A stretch of DNA of 64,000 nucleotides, from NCBI GenBank assembly GCA_951217055.1, contig OX578280.1, positions 1,178,001 to 1,242,000 of the forward strand, written 5' to 3'. Of this stretch, positions 3,985 to 55,873 are shown one piece after another; the first letter of the stretch is position 1, and each line of letters begins with the position of its first letter. The notes beneath the pieces are model-generated. The model saw nothing but the letters and a program-made list of their open reading frames with translations. It searched no databases and was not told the DNA's origin. The stretch is from Gerris lacustris (lineage: Eukaryota > Arthropoda > Insecta > Hemiptera > Gerridae). The position numbers were made by a program, and so were the translations under genes.

Positions 3985-4288
3985 CAAAAGTAAATCAAAT
4001 TATAATTATTATTTACTACGGGAAACAGACAGTGAAAAATACACTCCCGCGCCGGGATTTGAACCACGGGTCTCCTGTATTTCTAGTACAGATGCTCTGG
4101 CCAACTAAGCTACGCAGGAGAATGATTTTTAACTGCCGTAATCGATAACTAGTCCCGAATCCAAGCTTTCAATATTCATATACATTTAGACAGTCAATAT
4201 TTATGACATTAGAACTAAACCAAGAATTAACGCTTATAATTATAAAGTACTCAATTAGTACCTGTACCTTGTACAATAAATTCGAAAT
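3985..4288 (-). mobile_element. Family T element, copy 1 (left arm with complete tRNA-like sequence)
   Basis: Starts near AAATCAAATTATAATTATT, then ACTACGGGAAACAGACAG, then a complete tRNA-like sequence on the minus strand (separate entry). A central part (about 4120-4265) matches the centre of the copy at 29384-29813, including ACGCTTATAATTATA. The expected inverted right arm is not found here; another T copy follows directly. Confidence 0.75.
4045..4119 (-). tRNA. tRNA-like sequence inside family T, probably a pseudogene
   Basis: 75 nt. The acceptor stem TCCTGCG/CGCGGGA pairs over 7 bp with one G-T. The D-arm GCTT/GAGC, the loop AGTTGGCCA (A-box-like) and the anticodon stem CTGTA/TACAG are present, with loop CTAGAAA (anticodon position AGA, a serine triplet). 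The B-box-like part is GGTTCAAATCC, but the T-stem is poorly paired. True serine tRNAs have a long variable arm, which is absent, so this is better seen as the tRNA-derived head of a mobile element than as a working serine tRNA. Confidence 0.6.
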
Positions 4289-29371: not shown

Positions 29372-29496
29372 CATAATATTATGAATTCATATTTTACGAT
29401 TTTGGTAGTACTCATACTACAGAACGATTAAATTCTTTAATTTAAATCAAATTATAATTATTATTAACTAGGGGAAACACATAGAGAAAAATAGAC

Positions 29497-29569
29497 TCCA
29501 GCGCGGGGATTTGAACCACCGGCCTCTATATTTCCAGTATAGCGCTCTAACCAACTAAGCTACGCAGGA
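29497..29569 (-). tRNA. tRNA-like sequence in family T copy 5, left arm
   Basis: 73 nt: acceptor TCCTGCG/CGCTGGA with one mismatch, D-arm GCTT/GAGC with loop AGTTGGTTA, anticodon stem CTATA/TATAG with loop CTGGAAA (anticodon position GGA), short variable region, B-box GGTTCAAATCC. The serine-type triplet and the short variable region do not go together in normal tRNAs, so this is treated as an element part and not a functional tRNA gene. Confidence 0.6.
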
Positions 29570-42983: not shown

Positions 42984-43807
42984 TATTAAGTATGTTGTTT
43001 TACTTTAATATTATGGACTTTTTAGATATTTCAAGCTAAACTTCGAGGTAAGATGAATTACCGTAAGCGCAGTTTGATTTGAAAATTCGACTGTTTGGAA
43101 GAGTCCGTTAGAATACTTTAAGTAATATATTTACGCTCAGAATGCGGTGACAATTAAGTATAGAAAGCACTATCGGCGCTCCTCCTCATACATAGATGAA
43201 ATGCAAACTTTAAATTACAACCTTAATAAATTTCATCGATAAAGGCAATTGCGGACTGGAGAGAAGCTAGCTGACGCCCAATATTTTGGGTGCCTCATAA
43301 ATATCCAGGTTAACACCTCATTACACCAATTTACAAGCAACGCCGCACAAAATCTTTACCCAATATTGTATTCAAATATTAAATTGCACTTTAAACGAAT
43401 GCCATGAATTCAATCATTCTAGCTTATTAATGAATTGTATTGTTCCAATGATCTCATAAAGGTTTAAAAGTAATGGCAAAACAAATTAGAACAAAAGAAG
43501 CTCAATTACAATGTTTTTCTTCTAGCCACAAAATGTTGTTAAAAAGAAGATTATCCATAATATACAAATAAAAGCCATGAGCGGTAGAAGTGTTTAGATC
43601 ACTTCAAAGTTTATCTTAGAAATTATTCTTATTATCTGATCACGGCGATGATTCGAAATAACAAATAATCCATATTTATAAATTTATTAATTTTATTTAT
43701 TGTTCAATTAGTTACTGCATCTCAATGTTCGCTATCATTGATGGTCTTGTTCGTTAAACCCAACAAGAAGGATCAGCTGAAGTTCAAACCCTACAGTAAG
43801 GGTAGTT
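42984..43807. other. Unannotated stretch
   Basis: AT-rich, no feature recognised. Confidence 0.45.
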
Positions 43808-44378
43808 TCTATACTGTTCTACTCCTAGAAGCTCAGTAGTTTCTGTAATGTTCTGCTCCTAGAAGATCAGTAGTTTCTGTAATGTTCTGCTCCTAGAAGA
43901 TCAGTAGTTTCTGTACTGTTCTGCTCCTAGAAGATCAGTAGTTTCTATACTGTTCCTGGCCTAGCAGCTCAGAAGTTTCTGTACTGTTCTGCTCCTAGAA
44001 GATCAGTAGTTTCTGTACTGCTCTGCTCCTAGCAGCTCAGTAGTTTCTGTACTGTTCTGCTCCTAGAAGATCAGTAGTTTCTGTACTGCTCTGCTCCTAG
44101 CAGCTCAGTAGTTTCTGTACTGTCCTGCTCCTAGAAGATCATTAGTTTCTGTACTGCTCTGCTCCTAGCAGCTCAGTAGTTTCTGTACTGTTCTGCTCCT
44201 AGAAGATCAGTAGTTTCTGTACTGCTCTGCTCCTAGCAGCTCAGTAGTTTCTATACTGTTCTGCTCCTAGCAGATTAGTAATTTCTATAATGTTCTGCTC
44301 CTAGCAGCTCAGTAGTTTCTAAACTGTTCTGCTCCTAGCAGCTCAGTAGTTTCTATACTGTTCTGCTCCGAGAAGGAA
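43808..44378. repeat. 34-bp minisatellite with 68-bp higher-order pattern
   Basis: About 17 units of AGTAGTTTCTGTACTGTTCT + GCTCCTAGAAGATC. In the middle, units ending GAAGATC alternate with units reading CTGCTCTGCTCCTAGCAGCTC, giving a dimeric 68-bp period. Edge units are more diverged, as expected for expansion by unequal exchange. Confidence 0.95.
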
Positions 44379-47519: not shown

Positions 47520-48098
47520 TAGTCCAGGAGATAGCGTGCAAAAAAGTGTCTGACTAACATCAAGCTAGAATTTTGTATACAAGTCAATCTTTTAGCGCCT
47601 TTTAAGAATATGTGGTCGACTAAGTTCGTCTGCAGGACATAGCTTGGCAATAGGCGTTATAAAAAAACAAACCGGTGGAGAGCGGCCATGTCTCACCAAT
47701 TATGGTGGACAATGTGATTTTCACGATCCTGAGTACAGGATTGGTTAGTAGACCGAAAATCAAGTTGATTTTAGTTTGTCCCTTGACAAGTGACCACGTT
47801 GATTTTTAGTAATATTTGAATAACTAACCTATCAAGTGTGAAAATAACATCGATTTGATTTTTGGTCTAATAACTAATTCTGTACTCAGGATCATGAAAA
47901 TCACATTGTCCACCGTAATTGGTGAGACATGGCCGCTCTCCGCCGGTTTGTTTTTTTCAAACGCCTATTACCAAGCTATGTCCCGCAGACGAACTTAGTC
48001 GACCACATATTCTTAAAAGTCGCTAAAAGATTGACTTGTATACAAAATTCTAGCTTGATGTTAGTCAGACACTTTTTTGCACGCTATCTCCTGGACTA
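47520..48098. mobile_element. Family P foldback element, copy 1 (579 bp)
   Basis: Ends TAGTCCAGGAGATAGCGTGC and the exact inverse. The two halves stay complementary almost to the centre (arms about 230-250 bp: AGACACTTTTTTGCACGC, TTCGTCTGCAGGACATAGC, AGAGCGGCCATGTCTCACC and their inverses). ATA flanks both sides, a possible 3-bp duplication. No ORF. A second copy at 55393 confirms the left boundary. Confidence 0.9.
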
Positions 48099-50668
48099 AT
48101 AGAGAATGTAAAACAGACGGACATTTAAAAAAAATCTAGTGTGGACTTGTTTTCGGACAAATGTTTGTACTTAGTTTCAGTTTGTGCGAACAATTGTTTT
48201 AAACATTTGAATTATAAATAAAAAAATCAACACATAACTAAAAATATGATAGAGTTTTTCATTTCAGAGACTTTGTCTTTGGAAAGTTTGTGTCTGTATA
48301 AGTCTAACGATAACTGACGTAAAAATTTACCTATTAGTACGAAATCCGGCGTGCACGTGCCATATACGAGTTGATCAACAAAATGAAAATTTTTTTACGC
48401 GAGTTGTTTATGCTACGATTCACTAGTTTGCACAACGAAAACTATTTATTTGGTTTCGATACCAAGAGAAGAAAGTAATTTCCAATTTTGGTAACAAACG
48501 AATGATGCTGAATTTACTGTTATTATTATAATTATGAGATATCTATCTAACATAATTCATCAACAAGTTAAAACAATAAAGAAAGTAAATAAAATAATTA
48601 GTTAAACCCTTATCTTTAATCAAAACTCGCTCCTTTTTATGTTATGGATGTATAGATTTGATAAAAAGATAAGGTAAATGAAAACGAAGGGCAAGAGGGG
48701 TTATTTGTATAAAGGCAAAGGTGAGGAGATTTGTTATTTAATGTCTTCTCTCCCTGCAGCTGAATGTTTTATATCTTGTGAAGGCTAGAGTGTGCGGATA
48801 TTCTATTATTTATTGTCACGCGGCTTAGTTTTGGTTCTGCTACACCACCTAATGGTATAAAGTAGAGATTTCACTGGAAACTTTATTATATATTTATTTG
48901 ACTACGTGGTTTTGACAAGGGAAAAACTTATTTTCTCATACCGAAAAAATACACAATTTCAAATACGTCCTTTTACCTAACAACCTTTCACACACTTCAT
49001 ACAAAACTATTATTTAAAAAATTGTTTACGTCAACTATATGTTACAAAAAAGAGTTAATTTGTTATTTAGTGTCGAGTAGGTGCATTAAAAATCTATTAA
49101 ATGCTAGTTAAAGCAAATGCTTAAAATGCTCGCCCAGTAAATAAATTATTAAATAAAATAAAGTATAAAAACAAAACTAATAATATTAAGATATAATAAT
49201 GCAGATAATGTTGCAACAAAAACTAAAACATCTAGATGATGAATTCTGATTACAAAACTCACAAAGAATTTAAACCGGCTTACAAAAAACTAACGTTGAA
49301 TTCAATGTCGAAATTCAGATGACAATATAATATAACATGGAAAAACTATCTTAATGACGTTTCCCTGTTTGGCAACCCAAGGCTAAAAGACTTTAGCTGC
49401 CAATCAAAGCTTACACAATATCTTCAATTAAGAATTAATCACTTAGCATTTCGATAATTAGTAAAGGTTTAGTAGAATTGAGATACAAGTCTTGTAAATT
49501 AGTAAGGAAAGAGAACAACCGAATACTCTCAAACTGCAGTTAAAAACTGCAGTTTCCTCATTATTTTGCAGTTGACTTACATCGACGTAACACTTACAAC
49601 TCATTGGACATCATTGAAGGTAAATTCACAACAGTCAATGTAAAAGAAACATTCATGAAGTAGAAACACCTTCTTTCCACAACAAATTAATAAGCTGAAT
49701 AATTAACAGCTGTTTTCCCACAAACAACGTCAAACAAACAGAAAAAAGATAGATTGAGAATTAACAAGATTTTAGGCTTCTCATCTGCTCTGTAAAGGTA
49801 CAGTATTGTAACAAAACAATAAACCGTATGCTTTACATAGCCTTTAACAAAATTTTGTATCATAAGCAGACAAGGAAAAACCGAAAGTGGAAGAACTCGG
49901 AGATCGAGGAATGGTATCAGGTCAATAACCCACTTTAAAATATACTGTAAAATAATGTCATCAGGTACTTTATTAATTTTGAAAACAACAAAAAAATATC
50001 TTTAACTGGTTTTGAAACAGTTTATGTATAAACTAAAACTGTATTCTACGAATAAATGTATTATAGATCTATTTCTTATCAAATCATACATTAATCAAGC
50101 ATTACATTAATTTAACTTGTGTTAAATCGGTCTAAGCCGGGTAGAAATGTATTTAGGTAAAGATACTTAGGTTTAGGTTTGTATTTAGGTTCACGTGTCC
50201 AAGTGATTTAAGTTGATTCTCTGAAACTAAAACTCAAACACAGCAGTAAGTATTAATAAATTGAATATAAAGTGTATTTCAATGGAACGGTAGTTTATTG
50301 ATTTATTTAATTTTGCAAAAGTATAAAGTTGGTTATTTATCTTGGCTTGTATATCTACTGAACCTGAAGATCTACACAAATATTTATGAGTAGCATTAAC
50401 ACGAGTACAATGTAAAACTTACTAACTCGGGGTAATAACCCCTTGACCTGATTATTATCAGAAATATCTATTGTTGGACATTCAGAGAGGTGAGAAATGG
50501 ATCACACTAATGACTCCAACTATATTGAATAAAACGTGTCTCTACGTCATATAATCAACAATGTAGAAAATAAAAAGCAATCTTTAATATTATTTATCAT
50601 CTATCATTTTAAATTCATGTAATTGTCGCTCAAGCAGCAAGACTCTCCACCGACTTCAAACGACAACG
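48099..50668. other. Long stretch without recognised gene
   Basis: Contains a block at 48759-48825 matching 53646-53715 in inverse orientation, and the short palindrome AAACTGCAGTT...AACTGCAGTTT at about 49531-49557. No coding call. Confidence 0.4.
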
Positions 50669-51205
50669 AAGGAGGAGAGTCGGGAGAAGAAGAGTGGAAG
50701 ATGGAGAGTCGGAAGAAGGAGAGTGGAAGATGGAGAGTCGGAAGATGGAGAGTCGGAAGAAGGAGAGTGGAAGATGGAGAGTCGGAAGAAAGAGAGTCGG
50801 AAGATAGAGAGTCGGAAAAAGGAGAGTGGAAGATGGAAAATCGGGAGAAGGAGAGTGGAAGATGAAAAGTCGGGAGAAGGAGAGTGGAATATGGAGAGTC
50901 GGAAGAAGGATAGTCGGAAGATGGAGAGTCGGAAGAAGGAGAGTGGAAGATGGAGAGTCGGAAGAAGGAGAGTCGGAAGAAGGAGAGTCGGAAGATGGAA
51001 AGTCGGAAGAAGGAGAGTCGGAAGAAGGAGAGTCGGAAGATGGAAAGTCGGAAGATGGAAAGTCGGAAGAAGGAGAGTCGGAAGAAGGAGAGTCGGAAGA
51101 TGGAAAGTCGGAAGAAGGAGAGTCGGAAGAAGGAGAGTCGGAAGATGGAAAGTCGGAAGAAGGAGAGTCGGAAGAAGGAGAGTCGGAAGATGGAAAGTCG
51201 GAAGC
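50669..51205 (+). repeat. 15-bp minisatellite, about 36 units
   Basis: Unit GAGAGTCGGAAGAAG with variants (GATGGAAAGTCGGAA). From about 51000 to 51205 three variants alternate to give an exact 45-bp higher-order unit repeated several times. The period is a multiple of 3 and the unit lacks stops, so all plus frames (up to 166 codons) and a minus frame (235 codons) stay open. One plus frame reads Glu-Ser-Glu-Asp/Glu-Gly repeats. I treat it as a minisatellite; a translated low-complexity exon cannot be excluded. Confidence 0.93.
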
Positions 51206-53426: not shown

Positions 53427-54102
53427 GTATATCGTATATTTTATTCCATACTTTCCTCGTTCTTTCAGTGCATACATGAGAATATTGAAAATACCACTTT
53501 AACGAACTTAAAAGTCACAATTTGTTCGCTCATTTTTACAAAACCCAAAACCACATTTATAAATAAATACAAATATGTATTACATTTCTTCCGAGCGAAT
53601 CATATATATTTTATTGTATTTGAAGAAAGCAGAAGGTCCCAAAGTAAGCCACGTGACAATAAATAATAGAATAAACGCAAACTCCAGCCCCTGGAAGATA
53701 TAAAACATTCACTTCAAAAAGGGATTAAGTAAGAACATGTTCGGACGCTCGGCTTCATATGAATAAATATCCTCAGCTTTGATTTATCTTATCCCTCTGT
53801 CAAAAATACCCCCTAAAAAAATGTTAACATTAAATATATTTGGCTCAAAGTATTTTTTTTTTTTTTTTATACTTGTTTGTAATGTGATTCATAAACCTTG
53901 CCTTTTCTCAAGAGAATGCGAATATTTCAATAAATAGTTTTAGGTGTGCATAAAAGTTGCCCAAGCAAAGCCCCCAAATTTACCAAATTAATCTGGTCCA
54001 CGAAATTTTCTGTTTTAGTAAAGATGATGCTTAACGCATCTGCGCACACTACAGATTAAAGAGACACCGTTTTTAATAATAATAAATAATCAATAAATGA
54101 GT

Positions 54103-54106
<4 letters not shown>
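53427..54106. other. Unannotated stretch
   Basis: 53646-53715 is the inverse partner of 48759-48825 (shared ACAATAAATAATAGAATA and GATATAAAACATTCA). Nothing else noted. Confidence 0.5.

Positions 54107-54189
<83 letters not shown>
54107..54189. repeat. (TA)n microsatellite, left border of ribozyme array
   Basis: Pure alternating tract of about 83 bases ending where an inverted piece of the 302-bp repeat begins. Confidence 0.97.
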
Positions 54190-54190
<1 letters not shown>

Positions 54191-54487
54191 CACAATTTGC
54201 GAGAGACACCAAGGAATGTGCCACGCAAGCGTGACACATAGGAACTGTTCCAACATCAGACATAACGTCAATAAGATGTTGGAACAGTTCCTATGTGTCA
54301 CGCTTGCGTGGCACATTCCTTGGTGTCTCTCGCAAATTGTGTAGCCTATTGCAGTGTGCCAAAACACGGTATTACTCTGCTGATGTGTTTTGCCAGCCAA
54401 GCAAGAATGGCGGAATGAGAGCACCCTCGTCTCTGATAAGTCCTATATCTGATCTTCTTGATGTAATATAGGTCCAGAGTTGGGTGG

Positions 54488-54530
54488 GCATCGTCGGGCC
54501 CCTGATGAGTCGGACGCGACGAAACGATGC
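54488..54530 (+). ncRNA. Hammerhead ribozyme motif, unit 1
   Basis: Read 5' to 3': stem III strand GCATCG (54488-54493), TC completing a GTC cleavage triplet with the cut after 54495, GGGCCC (stem I, 54496-54501), CTGATGA core (54502-54508), stem II GTC-GGACGC-GAC (54509-54520), GAAA core (54521-54524), stem III strand CGATGC (54525-54530), exactly complementary to GCATCG. All invariant core bases of the hammerhead are in place and in order, with entry and exit through stem III. Stem I is oddly short: six self-complementary bases cannot close an ordinary loop. Activity may therefore need pairing between two ribozymes or a tertiary arrangement I cannot see. Confidence 0.85.
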
Positions 54531-54789
54531 AGGACATGGCATAATGCCGAGCCAACATCTTATTGACGTTATGTCTGATGTTGGAACAGTTCCTATGTGT
54601 CACGCTTGCGTGGCACATTCCTTGGTGTCTCTCGCAAATTGTGTAGCCTATTGCAGTGTGCCAAAACACGGTATTACTCTGCTGATGTGTTTTGCCAGCC
54701 AAGCAAGAATGGCGGTATGAGAGCACCCTCGTCTCTGATAAGTCCTATATCTGATCTTCTTGATGTAATATAGGTCCAGAGTTGGGTGG

Positions 54790-54832
54790 GCATCGTCGGG
54801 CCCCTGATGAGTCGGACGCAACGAAACGATGC
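54790..54832 (+). ncRNA. Hammerhead ribozyme motif, unit 2
   Basis: Same layout 302 bp downstream: GCATCG, TC (cut after 54797), GGGCCC, CTGATGA (54804-54810), GTC-GGACGC-AAC, GAAA (54823-54826), CGATGC. It differs from unit 1 by one base in stem II (GAC to AAC), which turns the loop-closing C-G pair into C-A. The core stays intact. The change looks like CG to CA, as from cytosine deamination on the other strand. Confidence 0.82.
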
Positions 54833-54983
54833 AGGACATGGCATAATGCCGAGCCAACATCTTATTGACATTATGTCTGATGTTGGAACAGTTCCTATGT
54901 GTCACGCTTGCGTGGCACATTCCTTGGTGTCTCTCGCAAATTGTGTAGCCTATTGCAGTGTGCCAAAACACGGTATTACTCTG

Positions 54984-54986
<3 letters not shown>

Positions 54987-55069
<83 letters not shown>
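54987..55069. repeat. (TA)n microsatellite, right border of ribozyme array
   Basis: About 83 bases of alternating TA joined directly to the truncated third unit. Confidence 0.97.
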
Positions 55070-55070
<1 letters not shown>

Positions 55071-55392
55071 CAAGTACATATCGCATAAACTTTTTAAAAA
55101 ATGCCTCCAAAAAAGTATAATACTAAACTTCTTTTAAAAGGGAAAAAGTTTTAAAATATTCTTTATGTAGTTTTTTAATTATAATTAATCTTTGTTAGCT
55201 TTTAAGATTAGCTTCCCGAGTACTCCCTAACAACTGCACTTCATACTTATATAACTTTATATTTTCAAAAGTTTAACATTTTCTATGGTTCCCTTGTGTC
55301 TTATAATATTTCCTTGGTAAACCACATTATAAGAGAATACTGTTCTCTAAAGTTGTTCATCTTAAGAAATAAAAAAAACCGCACAACTCAAA
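55070..55392. other. Unannotated stretch
   Basis: AT-rich sequence between the ribozyme array and the second P element; nothing recognised. Confidence 0.5.
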
Positions 55393-55873
55393 TAGTCCAG
55401 GAGATAACGTGCAAAAAAGTGTCTGACTAACATCAAGCTAGAATTTTGTATACAAGTCAATCTTTTAGCGCCTTTTAAGAATATGTGGTCGGCTAAGTTC
55501 GTCTGCGGGACATAGCTTGGCAATAGGCGTTTGAAAAAAACAAACTGGTGGATAGTGACCATGTCTCACCAATTATGGTGGACAATGTGATTTTCATGAT
55601 CCTGAGTACAGAATAAGTTAGTAGACCGAAAATCAAGTTGATGTTAGTTTGTCCCTTGACAGGTGACCACGTTGATTTTTAGTATTATTTGAATAACTAA
55701 CCTATCAAGTGTGAAAATAACATCGACTTGATTTTTGGTTTACTAACTAATTCTGTACTCAGGATCATGAAAATCACATTTTCCACCATAATTGGTGAGA
55801 CATGGCCGCTCTCCACGCACTGGTGTGTTTTTATCAAACGCCTATTGCCAAGCTATGTCCCGCAGACGAACTT
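55393..55873. mobile_element. Family P foldback element, copy 2 (right end missing)
   Basis: Starts TAGTCCAGGAGATAACGTGC and follows copy 1 closely through the centre to CCCGCAGACGAACTT, where copy 1 continues TAGTCGACC but this copy switches to other sequence. The last 100 bp or so of the right arm are lost. Confidence 0.88.

What the first reader, a model, noticed from the sequence alone, without database searches (positions are those of the whole stretch)
54190..54988. Tandem 302-bp repeat encoding hammerhead ribozymes
Seen: two units each carry GTC, CTGATGA and GAAA in the right order, with 6-bp complementary stem III strands and a stem II. Known: hammerheads in tandem repeats occur in retrozymes, Penelope-like terminal repeats and a few satellites, where they cut multimeric transcripts into unit-length RNA. 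Inference: this locus could yield 302-nt circular or linear RNAs. It is the most unusual item in the window.
Basis: partly seen in the sequence, partly recalled or inferred. Interest (0 to 1): 0.9.

Follow-up and report, generated by a model that had tools for sequence, protein, structure and literature searches.

The report
Hammerhead retroelement copied from RNA circles
The repeat belongs to a family whose hammerhead core occurs 3,020 times in this genome; at 22 of 40 sites examined at least one mutation is carried by every unit that covers it, so each insertion was likely copied round and round from one small RNA circle, probably by a borrowed Penelope-like reverse transcriptase that started from both cut DNA ends.

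Summary
In detail: 2.36 direct copies of a 302-bp unit (54275-54988) carry two hammerhead motifs, preceded by a 94-bp inverted segment. Rfam's type III model scores them 42.6 and 34.8 bits, below its 48.5 cut-off. Part of the core matches 3,020 places in the genome exactly. Of 40 sites examined, 35 are two-armed, head to head; in 27 of these 35 the outer ends lie within 1 nt of unit positions 150 and 191. Targets are mostly (TA)n; the 5 other sites share 12-15 bp across the insertion, a few element bases included. This resembles Penelope-like insertions (inverted arms, short target duplications, 30-40 bp 'tail' between two start sites). Variants are nearly all-or-one: 36 array-wide, 89 in one unit, 9 between, so each insertion passed through one unit, most simply an RNA circle. 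Helix I is a loopless palindrome, GGGCCC; the lowest-energy fold of two isolated motifs is exactly a double hammerhead joined through it, so cleavage is predicted to need two units, though longer-transcript folds support this weakly or not at all. Cleavage, circles and the partner enzyme are inferred. Verdict: retrozyme-like element, new variant of a known kind.

The parts
54107..54188 (.). (TA)41, left target flank
   Evidence: same kind of flank at 35 of 40 sites, read by eye
54189..54282 (-). inverted (left) arm, unit positions 150 down to 57; outer end at u150
   Evidence: 100% reverse complement of 54552-54645
54275..54988 (+). direct arm, 2.36 units of 302 bp, unit positions 82 to 191; outer end at u191
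54275..54282 (.). 8-bp overlap at the head-to-head junction of the two arms (GATGTTGG)
   Evidence: gap -8 for WIN
54488..54530 (+). hammerhead motif, unit 1 (intact stems II and III)
   Evidence: RF00008 42.6 bits, E 9.8e-8, gathering score 48.5
54790..54832 (+). hammerhead motif, unit 2 (stem II has a C-A mismatch at 54820)
   Evidence: RF00008 34.8 bits, E 1.6e-5
54496..54501 (+). helix I of unit 1: GGGCCC, palindrome without loop; predicted cleavage before 54496
   Evidence: sequence; cofold
54798..54803 (+). helix I of unit 2: GGGCCC; predicted cleavage before 54798
   Evidence: sequence; cofold of two unit-1 motifs
54646..54686 (+). 41-nt segment u151-u191 between the two inferred reverse-transcription start sites ('tail'-like)
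   Evidence: ends tally; compared with the Penelope tail, PMC11167929 and PMC3846280
54948..54988 (+). terminal tail-like segment, present at the right outer end only
54987..55069 (.). (TA)41, right target flank (2 bp shared with the element end)

Best explanation
This locus is one insertion of a high-copy, non-coding 302-nt hammerhead-bearing repeat family, likely a retrozyme: its multimeric transcript is predicted to cut itself into monomers, one circularised monomer would then serve as template, and a Penelope-like reverse transcriptase probably copies that circle several times from both cut target strands. Shown by the sequence: two arms meeting head to head; outer ends fixed at unit positions 150 and 191; (TA)n targets, or short shared target sequence elsewhere; and variants carried mostly either by all units of an insertion, in both arms, or by a single unit. 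Inferred: self-cleavage at 54495/54496, circularisation by a host ligase, and a Penelope-like (GIY-YIG) enzyme acting in trans. Further predicted: because helix I is a loopless palindrome, a lone unit cannot form it, so cleavage needs two units side by side, and a finished monomer circle would be protected from cutting itself again.
For: Family: 3,020 exact core matches, reversed control 0; hammerhead E-values. Insertion anatomy: 35 of 40 sites two-armed; outer ends 150 and 191 within 1 nt in 27 of 35 and within 8 nt in 32 of 35; 0 of 40 with the opposite (tail-to-tail) order. The five sites outside (TA)n share 12-15 bp across the insertion, a few element bases included. Inner ends are spread over the unit (75 ends, KS p 0.54) and junctions carry overlaps or short inserts. 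One-unit bottleneck: of 134 variants, 36 array-wide, 89 single-unit, 9 intermediate; 22 of 40 loci have an array-wide variant, in 20 of them covered in both arms, up to 26 of 26 unit fragments. After drops, mean distance is 0.0014 within arms, 0.0016 between the two arms of a locus, 0.0096 between loci. Penelope link: a Penelope-like protein cuts and extends both strands of AT-rich DNA and starts reverse transcription at internal sites whose interval is the 30-40 bp tail (PMC11167929); published Penelope inserts are head-to-head with 8-10 bp duplications and a 31-bp tail (PMC3846280); the genome has GIY-YIG matches at all 150 scored candidates (of 1,680), frames up to 900 aa, many in minus/plus pairs. 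Dimer: cofold MFE of two 43-nt unit-1 motifs is exactly the double hammerhead, -39.1 kcal/mol, against -13.7 for one copy; 1 of 1,000 random hexamers does the same. Array-wide variants avoid the hammerhead outside loop II (0 of 29) while single-unit ones do not (14 of 89; Fisher p 0.02).
Against: No RNA or cleavage data. Hammerhead scores stay under Rfam's cut-off, and at E<=1 the same model also rings, under the cut-off, in 3 of 14 control genomes. The best single-copy fold is not the hammerhead, and unit 1 with the mutated unit 2 does not cofold as the double hammerhead. In longer transcripts the double-hammerhead helices get pair probabilities of only 0.06-0.25 in one stretch and 0.0 in the two others tried. 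Helix I is no better conserved than a body hexamer once flanks are intact (GGGCCC in 86 of the 100 places listed; control 88 of 100), and none of the 14 variants is a compensating palindrome. The avoidance test weakens to p 0.11 for the whole 43-nt motif and p 0.06 with one clustered unit counted once. That the GIY-YIG frames are Penelope elements is inferred: no reverse-transcriptase search was made. No partner was identified; the one 601-bp 3' end of such a frame that I compared had no similarity. In the purified Penelope system hammerhead cleavage was not needed for insertion. Three of 35 two-armed sites (L037, L042, L045) break the end rule. Homogenisation after insertion is not formally excluded.
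Confidence: 0.75

Rival explanations
1. The template is an uncleaved multimeric transcript of a parent array, not a circle; the hammerhead plays no part in transposition.
For: The purified Penelope protein inserts unprocessed RNA, and hammerhead mutants insert equally well (PMC11167929). Arrays are tandem in the genome and could give such transcripts.
Against: A single-unit mutation in a parent array would reappear in single units of daughter arrays. Instead 29 distinct variants are array-wide, 23 of them private to one locus, and only 3 of 86 distinct single-unit variants recur as single-unit variants in a second locus, about the chance number (4.3 pairs expected); five variants are single-unit in one locus and array-wide in another, as a circle would make them.
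Confidence: 0.12
2. A short two-armed insertion was later expanded by unequal exchange or slippage, which also homogenised the units (ordinary satellite behaviour).
For: Gives array-wide variants too; a few intermediate variants exist (9 of 134).
Against: Both opposed arms share the variants in 20 loci. The longest insertion, 24.7 units, shows 1 private change in the 7,266 bases of its long arm, so expansion would have to be very fast and complete.
Confidence: 0.1
3. The inverted arm arose by self-priming of cDNA (the mechanism once proposed for Penelope), not by priming from the second target strand.
For: Proposed for head-to-head Penelope copies (PMC3846280). The window junction lies in an 8-bp inverted repeat.
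Against: The second arm ends at a second fixed place, 41 nt from the first (27 of 35 sites within 1 nt), and can be far longer or shorter than the first. A self-copied arm would not be expected to gain its own start site.
Confidence: 0.1
4. The hammerhead-like motif is a passenger without activity; the repeat is an ordinary short retroelement or satellite.
For: Scores under the curated cut-off; helix I has no loop; single-copy fold is not a hammerhead.
Against: 0 of 115 differences in the hammerhead against 81 of 666 elsewhere in the four fragments of one divergent copy at L044 (not independent counts); array-wide variants avoid it outside loop II; GGGCCC intact in 25 of 30 loci with bodies 81-96% alike (by eye; these loci were found through the hammerhead itself).
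Confidence: 0.08

Closest known systems
Metazoan non-LTR retrozymes (Cervera and de la Pena 2020, PMC7229834)
   Same: Small tandem repeats of about 170-400 bp with a hammerhead, dimers to large multimers, non-coding; proposed circle intermediate and Penelope-type helper.
   Different: Their hammerheads are type I; here the local motif matches type III with a loopless palindromic helix I. Fixed ends at two places, head-to-head arms and array-wide variants are not described in the four of six parts of that paper read here.
Penelope-like elements with GIY-YIG endonuclease (PMC11167929, PMC3846280)
   Same: Head-to-head arms, short target duplications, AT-rich targets, 30-40 bp tail between two start sites, hammerhead upstream of the start sites.
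   Different: No reverse transcriptase or endonuclease frame seen here; unit is 302 bp; published hammerheads there are minimal type I that may act as dimers (PMC7761336 passage).
Plant LTR retrozymes (passages in PMC7761336, and PMC11722881; PMC4918200 seen only in a listing)
   Same: Type III hammerhead, non-coding, circle intermediate.
   Different: Those have LTRs, primer-binding site, polypurine tract, 4-bp duplications and 600-1000 bp spacing; here 302-bp units in head-to-head arms.
Dimeric hammerheads of newt satellite and avocado sunblotch viroid (passage in PMC6155905)
   Same: Two tandem motifs needed for an efficient fold.
   Different: There helix III is elongated in the dimer; here the palindrome is in helix I. 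That source says type III hammerheads cut well as monomers.

Membership tests
Metazoan non-LTR retrozyme | unit of about 170-400 nt in tandem copies, dimer to multimer | tested here: met
   302 bp; 2.65 to 24.68 units per site, both arms together, in 40 sites
Metazoan non-LTR retrozyme | type I hammerhead | tested here: not met
   the hammerhead match of each unit is to type III, RF00008, and no type I match is listed at E<=10 (overlapping matches of one clan are reduced to the best); a genome search with the type I model got no answer
Metazoan non-LTR retrozyme | low GC content (under 45-50%) | tested here: inconclusive
   unit 49% GC, window 32%
Metazoan non-LTR retrozyme | target duplications longer than 4 bp, when present | tested here: met
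   12-15 bp shared across the insertion at 5 of 5 non-(TA)n sites, including a few element bases
Metazoan non-LTR retrozyme | expressed as linear and circular RNA | not testable with these tools
   no RNA data held
Metazoan non-LTR retrozyme | host is an animal | not tested
   the clade search (PF00379) did not complete
Plant LTR retrozyme | LTRs with 4-bp duplications, 600-1000 bp spacing | tested here: not met
   302-bp head-to-tail units, head-to-head arms; primer-binding site and polypurine tract not searched
Penelope-like element | reverse transcriptase and GIY-YIG reading frame in the element | tested here: not met
   longest stop-to-stop frames over the array are 132 and 161 aa, the latter running into the TA repeat; no Pfam scan of the array was made
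Penelope-type insertion mechanism (works like) | head-to-head arms, short target duplication, tail between two start sites | tested here: met
   35 of 40 two-armed, 27 of 35 with ends 150/191, 41-nt interval; duplications
Hammerhead ribozyme (Rfam RF00008) | score at or above the gathering cut-off | tested here: not met
   42.6 and 34.8 against 48.5 bits; 0 of 54 genome matches over it
Hammerhead ribozyme | conserved core CUGANGA, GAAA, UH cleavage site, helices II and III | tested here: met
   (unit 1; unit 2 has one mismatch in helix II)
Hammerhead ribozyme | helix I able to form within one unit | tested here: not met
   GGGCCC has no loop; a 1-bp version costs energy (-9.2 against -11.4); six pairs form between two copies in cofold

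The most novel reading that the evidence does not exclude
A dimer-locked hammerhead: the loopless GGGCCC palindrome makes helix I only between two tandem units, so multimers cut themselves but the finished monomer circle cannot. The stable circle is then copied many times by a Penelope-like enzyme starting from both target strands at two fixed sites, leaving head-to-head arrays that are copies of one circle. This would be a double hammerhead through helix I, and a natural answer to how a retrozyme circle escapes re-cutting.
Probability: 0.4. Interest if true: 0.85.

Novelty: new variant of a known kind. Interest (0 to 1): 0.77.

Why it matters
The helper enzyme and the template of animal-type retrozymes have been proposed but, in the literature read here, not shown: the 2020 paper names Penelope-like elements as a strong candidate and the circle as the likely template. 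The fixed two-site ends and the all-or-one variant pattern give a genomic record that bears on both points and can be looked for in other genomes with retrozymes. The two start sites also speak to how Penelope elements come to be head to head. If the helix I dimer is real, it is a simple switch that lets an RNA circle form once and stay closed.

Tried and rejected
Viroid-like integration with hammerheads on both strands: no minus-strand hammerhead match at E<=10 in 54100-55100, so dropped. A MIR5274 microRNA match (57.7 bits, cut-off 100) is the fold-back of the two arms. CpG decay as the cause of unit differences: two of three changes are CG to CA, but window CpG observed/expected is 0.99, so not claimed. 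Relatives elsewhere: five viral-contig scans and one genome-contig scan. Three scans with unit pieces found none, as did one loose hammerhead pattern. Another loose pattern gave five contigs, by my reading ordinary closed-helix-I hammerheads. The 17-base pattern gave six prokaryotic places, none followed by the rest of the motif. Plasmid and phage collections gave no match. The tools say that records of the window's own genome or near kin may be left out of these scans. Pfam on 10 window frames gave only weak hits, none over a curated cut-off. Host clade not established (PF00379 did not complete). Helix I conservation as a test of the palindrome: negative; a second body control did not complete. 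Inner ends piling up at u1 as a mark of linear templates: 8 of 75 within 5 nt against 2.7 expected (thresholds chosen after looking), too weak to use. The 39 fetched sites were picked by me from the listing (464 matches, 40 of 1,470 candidates scored, listing cut), which favours young copies most like the window. Dropped before the counts and the second line: L044 arms 0 and 1, L032 arm 0 and L022 arm 0 (older or separate pieces); searches also drop variants covered by fewer than 3 units. Without the drops the mean distance between arms of one locus is 0.0100, median 0. Dropped before the end tally: the older pieces of L044 and L032; L022 was counted by its outermost pieces although its interior is complex. 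The unit totals count overlapping pieces twice; one search corrects them.

Full report
What is there. The window holds (TA)41 at 54107-54188, a 94-bp inverted segment at 54189-54282, 2.36 direct copies of a 302-bp unit at 54275-54988, and (TA)41 at 54987-55069. I number the unit from the predicted cleavage point, u1 = 54496. The inverted segment is u150 down to u57; the direct arm runs from u82 to u191. Copies differ at 3 of 412 positions.

The hammerhead. Rfam's type III model (RF00008) matches both units end to end, 42.6 and 34.8 bits, E 9.8e-8 and 1.6e-5 in a 1,001-base search, under the cut-off of 48.5; at the cut-offs the whole window gives only two tRNA-like hits. Helix III has 7 bp, stem II 4 bp in unit 1; unit 2 has a C-A mismatch. 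Between the cleavage base and CTGATGA stand only six bases, GGGCCC, too few for a hairpin. The lowest-energy fold of one 43-nt copy is not a hammerhead (-13.7 kcal/mol; hammerhead without helix I -11.4). The lowest-energy fold of two unit-1 copies is exactly the symmetric double hammerhead whose two cores share a 6-bp helix I (-39.1); unit 1 with the mutated unit 2 folds otherwise. Of 1,000 random hexamers one does the same as GGGCCC. In longer transcripts the prediction is much weaker: pair probabilities 0.06-0.25 in 54275-54988 and 0.0 in two other stretches. So the dimer is a prediction from the motif, not from the whole RNA.

The family. The window lies in a 937-Mb genome of 69 contigs, host not named. 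The helix III strand plus core with a free hexamer matches 3,020 places exactly, reversed control 0. Of the 100 places listed, 86 carry GGGCCC; a body pattern of the same design has 1,649 matches and keeps its hexamer in 88 of 100 listed (both counted by eye). So the hammerhead flanks are intact more often than those body flanks, but the hexamer itself is not specially conserved once its flanks are intact. Spacings of 301, 302, 307, 308 and 314 in the listing show subfamilies. A divergent copy in L044 has 0 of 115 differences in the hammerhead against 81 of 666 elsewhere, over four fragments that are not independent. The genome search with RF00008 scored 68 of 102,652 candidates; 54 match at E<=1, none over the cut-off, and 3 of 14 control genomes also ring under the cut-off.

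Insertion anatomy. I fetched 39 sites, picked from the listing, and added the window. Of 40, 35 are two-armed with the arms head to head; none has the opposite order. In 27 of the 35, one outer end is within 1 nt of u150 and the other within 1 nt of u191; in 32 of 35 within 8 nt; three break the rule; the five one-armed sites end at one of the two places. By my reading, 35 of 40 sites have (TA)n at one edge or both. The five others share 12-15 bp across the insertion, a few bases of which belong to the element ends; at two of these (L017, L046) the ends are u151 and u190 with no TA at the junction, so the start places seem to belong to the RNA, not to the target. Inner ends are spread (75 ends, KS p 0.54) and junctions have overlaps up to 11 bp or inserts up to 35 bp.

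This matches what is known of Penelope-like elements. A purified Poseidon protein cuts and extends both strands, prefers AT-rich DNA, and starts at internal places whose interval is the 'tail' of 30-40 bp (PMC11167929, section 3 read). Rotifer Penelope copies are often head to head, with 8-10 bp duplications and an optional 31-bp tail at one end (PMC3846280, passages). Here the interval is 41 nt. The genome has GIY-YIG matches at all 150 scored candidates (of 1,680 in the first look), frames up to 900 aa, and many minus/plus neighbours; that these are Penelope elements is inferred, since no reverse-transcriptase search was made. I found no partner by sequence; only one 601-bp 3' end of such a frame was compared.

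One unit per insertion. From the 40 sites I cut 360 unit fragments, 212 of them full. After leaving out older or separate pieces and variants covered by fewer than three units, 134 variants remain: 36 in every covering unit, 89 in one unit, 9 between. Twenty-two of 40 loci have an array-wide variant, and in 20 loci one is covered in both arms; the extreme is L039, 26 of 26 unit fragments. Mean distances after the same drops are 0.0014 within arms, 0.0016 between arms of a locus and 0.0096 between loci. Of 29 distinct array-wide variants 23 are private to a locus; 3 of 86 distinct single-unit variants recur as such in a second locus, against 4.3 chance pairs. A long linear transcript would hand single-unit mutations on as single-unit mutations; a circle turns them into array-wide ones. 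So a circle of one unit, read round and round from both target strands, is the simplest reading. Array-wide variants avoid the hammerhead outside loop II (0 of 29; single-unit 14 of 89; p 0.02); for the whole motif it is 1 of 29 against 15 of 89, p 0.11, and p 0.06 outside loop II with a clustered unit counted once. This is in the direction expected if only RNAs with a working hammerhead are handed on, but it is weak.

How it would work. Read-through transcription of an array; cleavage by paired hammerheads in neighbouring units (predicted); ligation to a circle by a host ligase (inferred; RtcB does this for animal retrozymes in vitro, PMC7229834); two-sided target-primed copying by a Penelope-like enzyme (inferred from anatomy); joining of the two cDNAs head to head. 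The 2020 paper notes that something other than self-pairing must block the hammerhead in animal circles; a helix I that needs a second unit would do so here.

Comparison. Papers: PMC7229834 parts 1-4 of 6 read; PMC11167929 section 3 read; PMC3846280, PMC6155905, PMC7761336, PMC3088659 and PMC11722881 passages only; PMC4918200 listing only. What I saw gives type I for animal repeats, type III mostly for plants and their circular RNAs, and dimers through an elongated helix III for newt and viroid. Searches for a double hammerhead with helix I (no paper), for a palindromic stem I dimer (11 listed) and for head-to-head or twin-primed retrozymes (4 listed) showed none that I recognised as describing this; beyond the papers named I saw only listings. 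Many subscription papers are not held, among them the paper on dimeric Penelope hammerheads (PMC5785218). Whether the host is an animal is not shown; abundant GIY-YIG frames of Penelope type would suggest it.

Noticed in passing
L065 1129-1355: A different head-to-head palindrome (113-nt arms, 96% complementary) with a hammerhead-like motif CTGATGATGGCGTTTAGCCGAAACCGGTC, by eye a minimal type I with a palindromic ACCGGT helix III, next to (TA)n.
   Followed up: partly
L059 741-999: Another head-to-head palindrome (127-nt arms) with a possible minimal type I motif CTGACGATGACTGAATAAGTCGAAACCGGTA; its helix I is doubtful.
   Followed up: partly
genome G000, e.g. C1:64738304 and C1:64743193: Many GIY-YIG matches in minus/plus pairs a few kb apart, frames up to 900 aa.
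   Followed up: partly
genome G000, C1:8956401, C1:9445208, C1:10099658, C1:39775501: Subfamilies of the element with spacings of 307, 301, 314 and 308 bp.
   Followed up: no
40 sites, inner arm ends: Mild excess of inner ends within 5 nt of the predicted ligation point (8 of 75 against 2.7 expected); might mark stops at the joint or linear templates.
   Followed up: partly
window 47520-48098 and 55389-55873: Related palindromic dispersed repeats, 93.6% alike over 485 bp; the second lies 0.3 kb right of the element's TA flank.
   Followed up: no
window 4044-4119 and 29496-29569: Two tRNA-like hits on the minus strand (46.9 and 58.4 bits) within repeated sequence; possibly SINE heads.
   Followed up: no
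window 43802-44375, 50668-51204: Tandem arrays of 34 bp x 17 and 15 bp x 36.
   Followed up: no
L054-L058 (viral contigs): Five viral contigs with hammerhead motifs that by eye have an ordinary closed helix I upstream of CTGATGAG.
   Followed up: no
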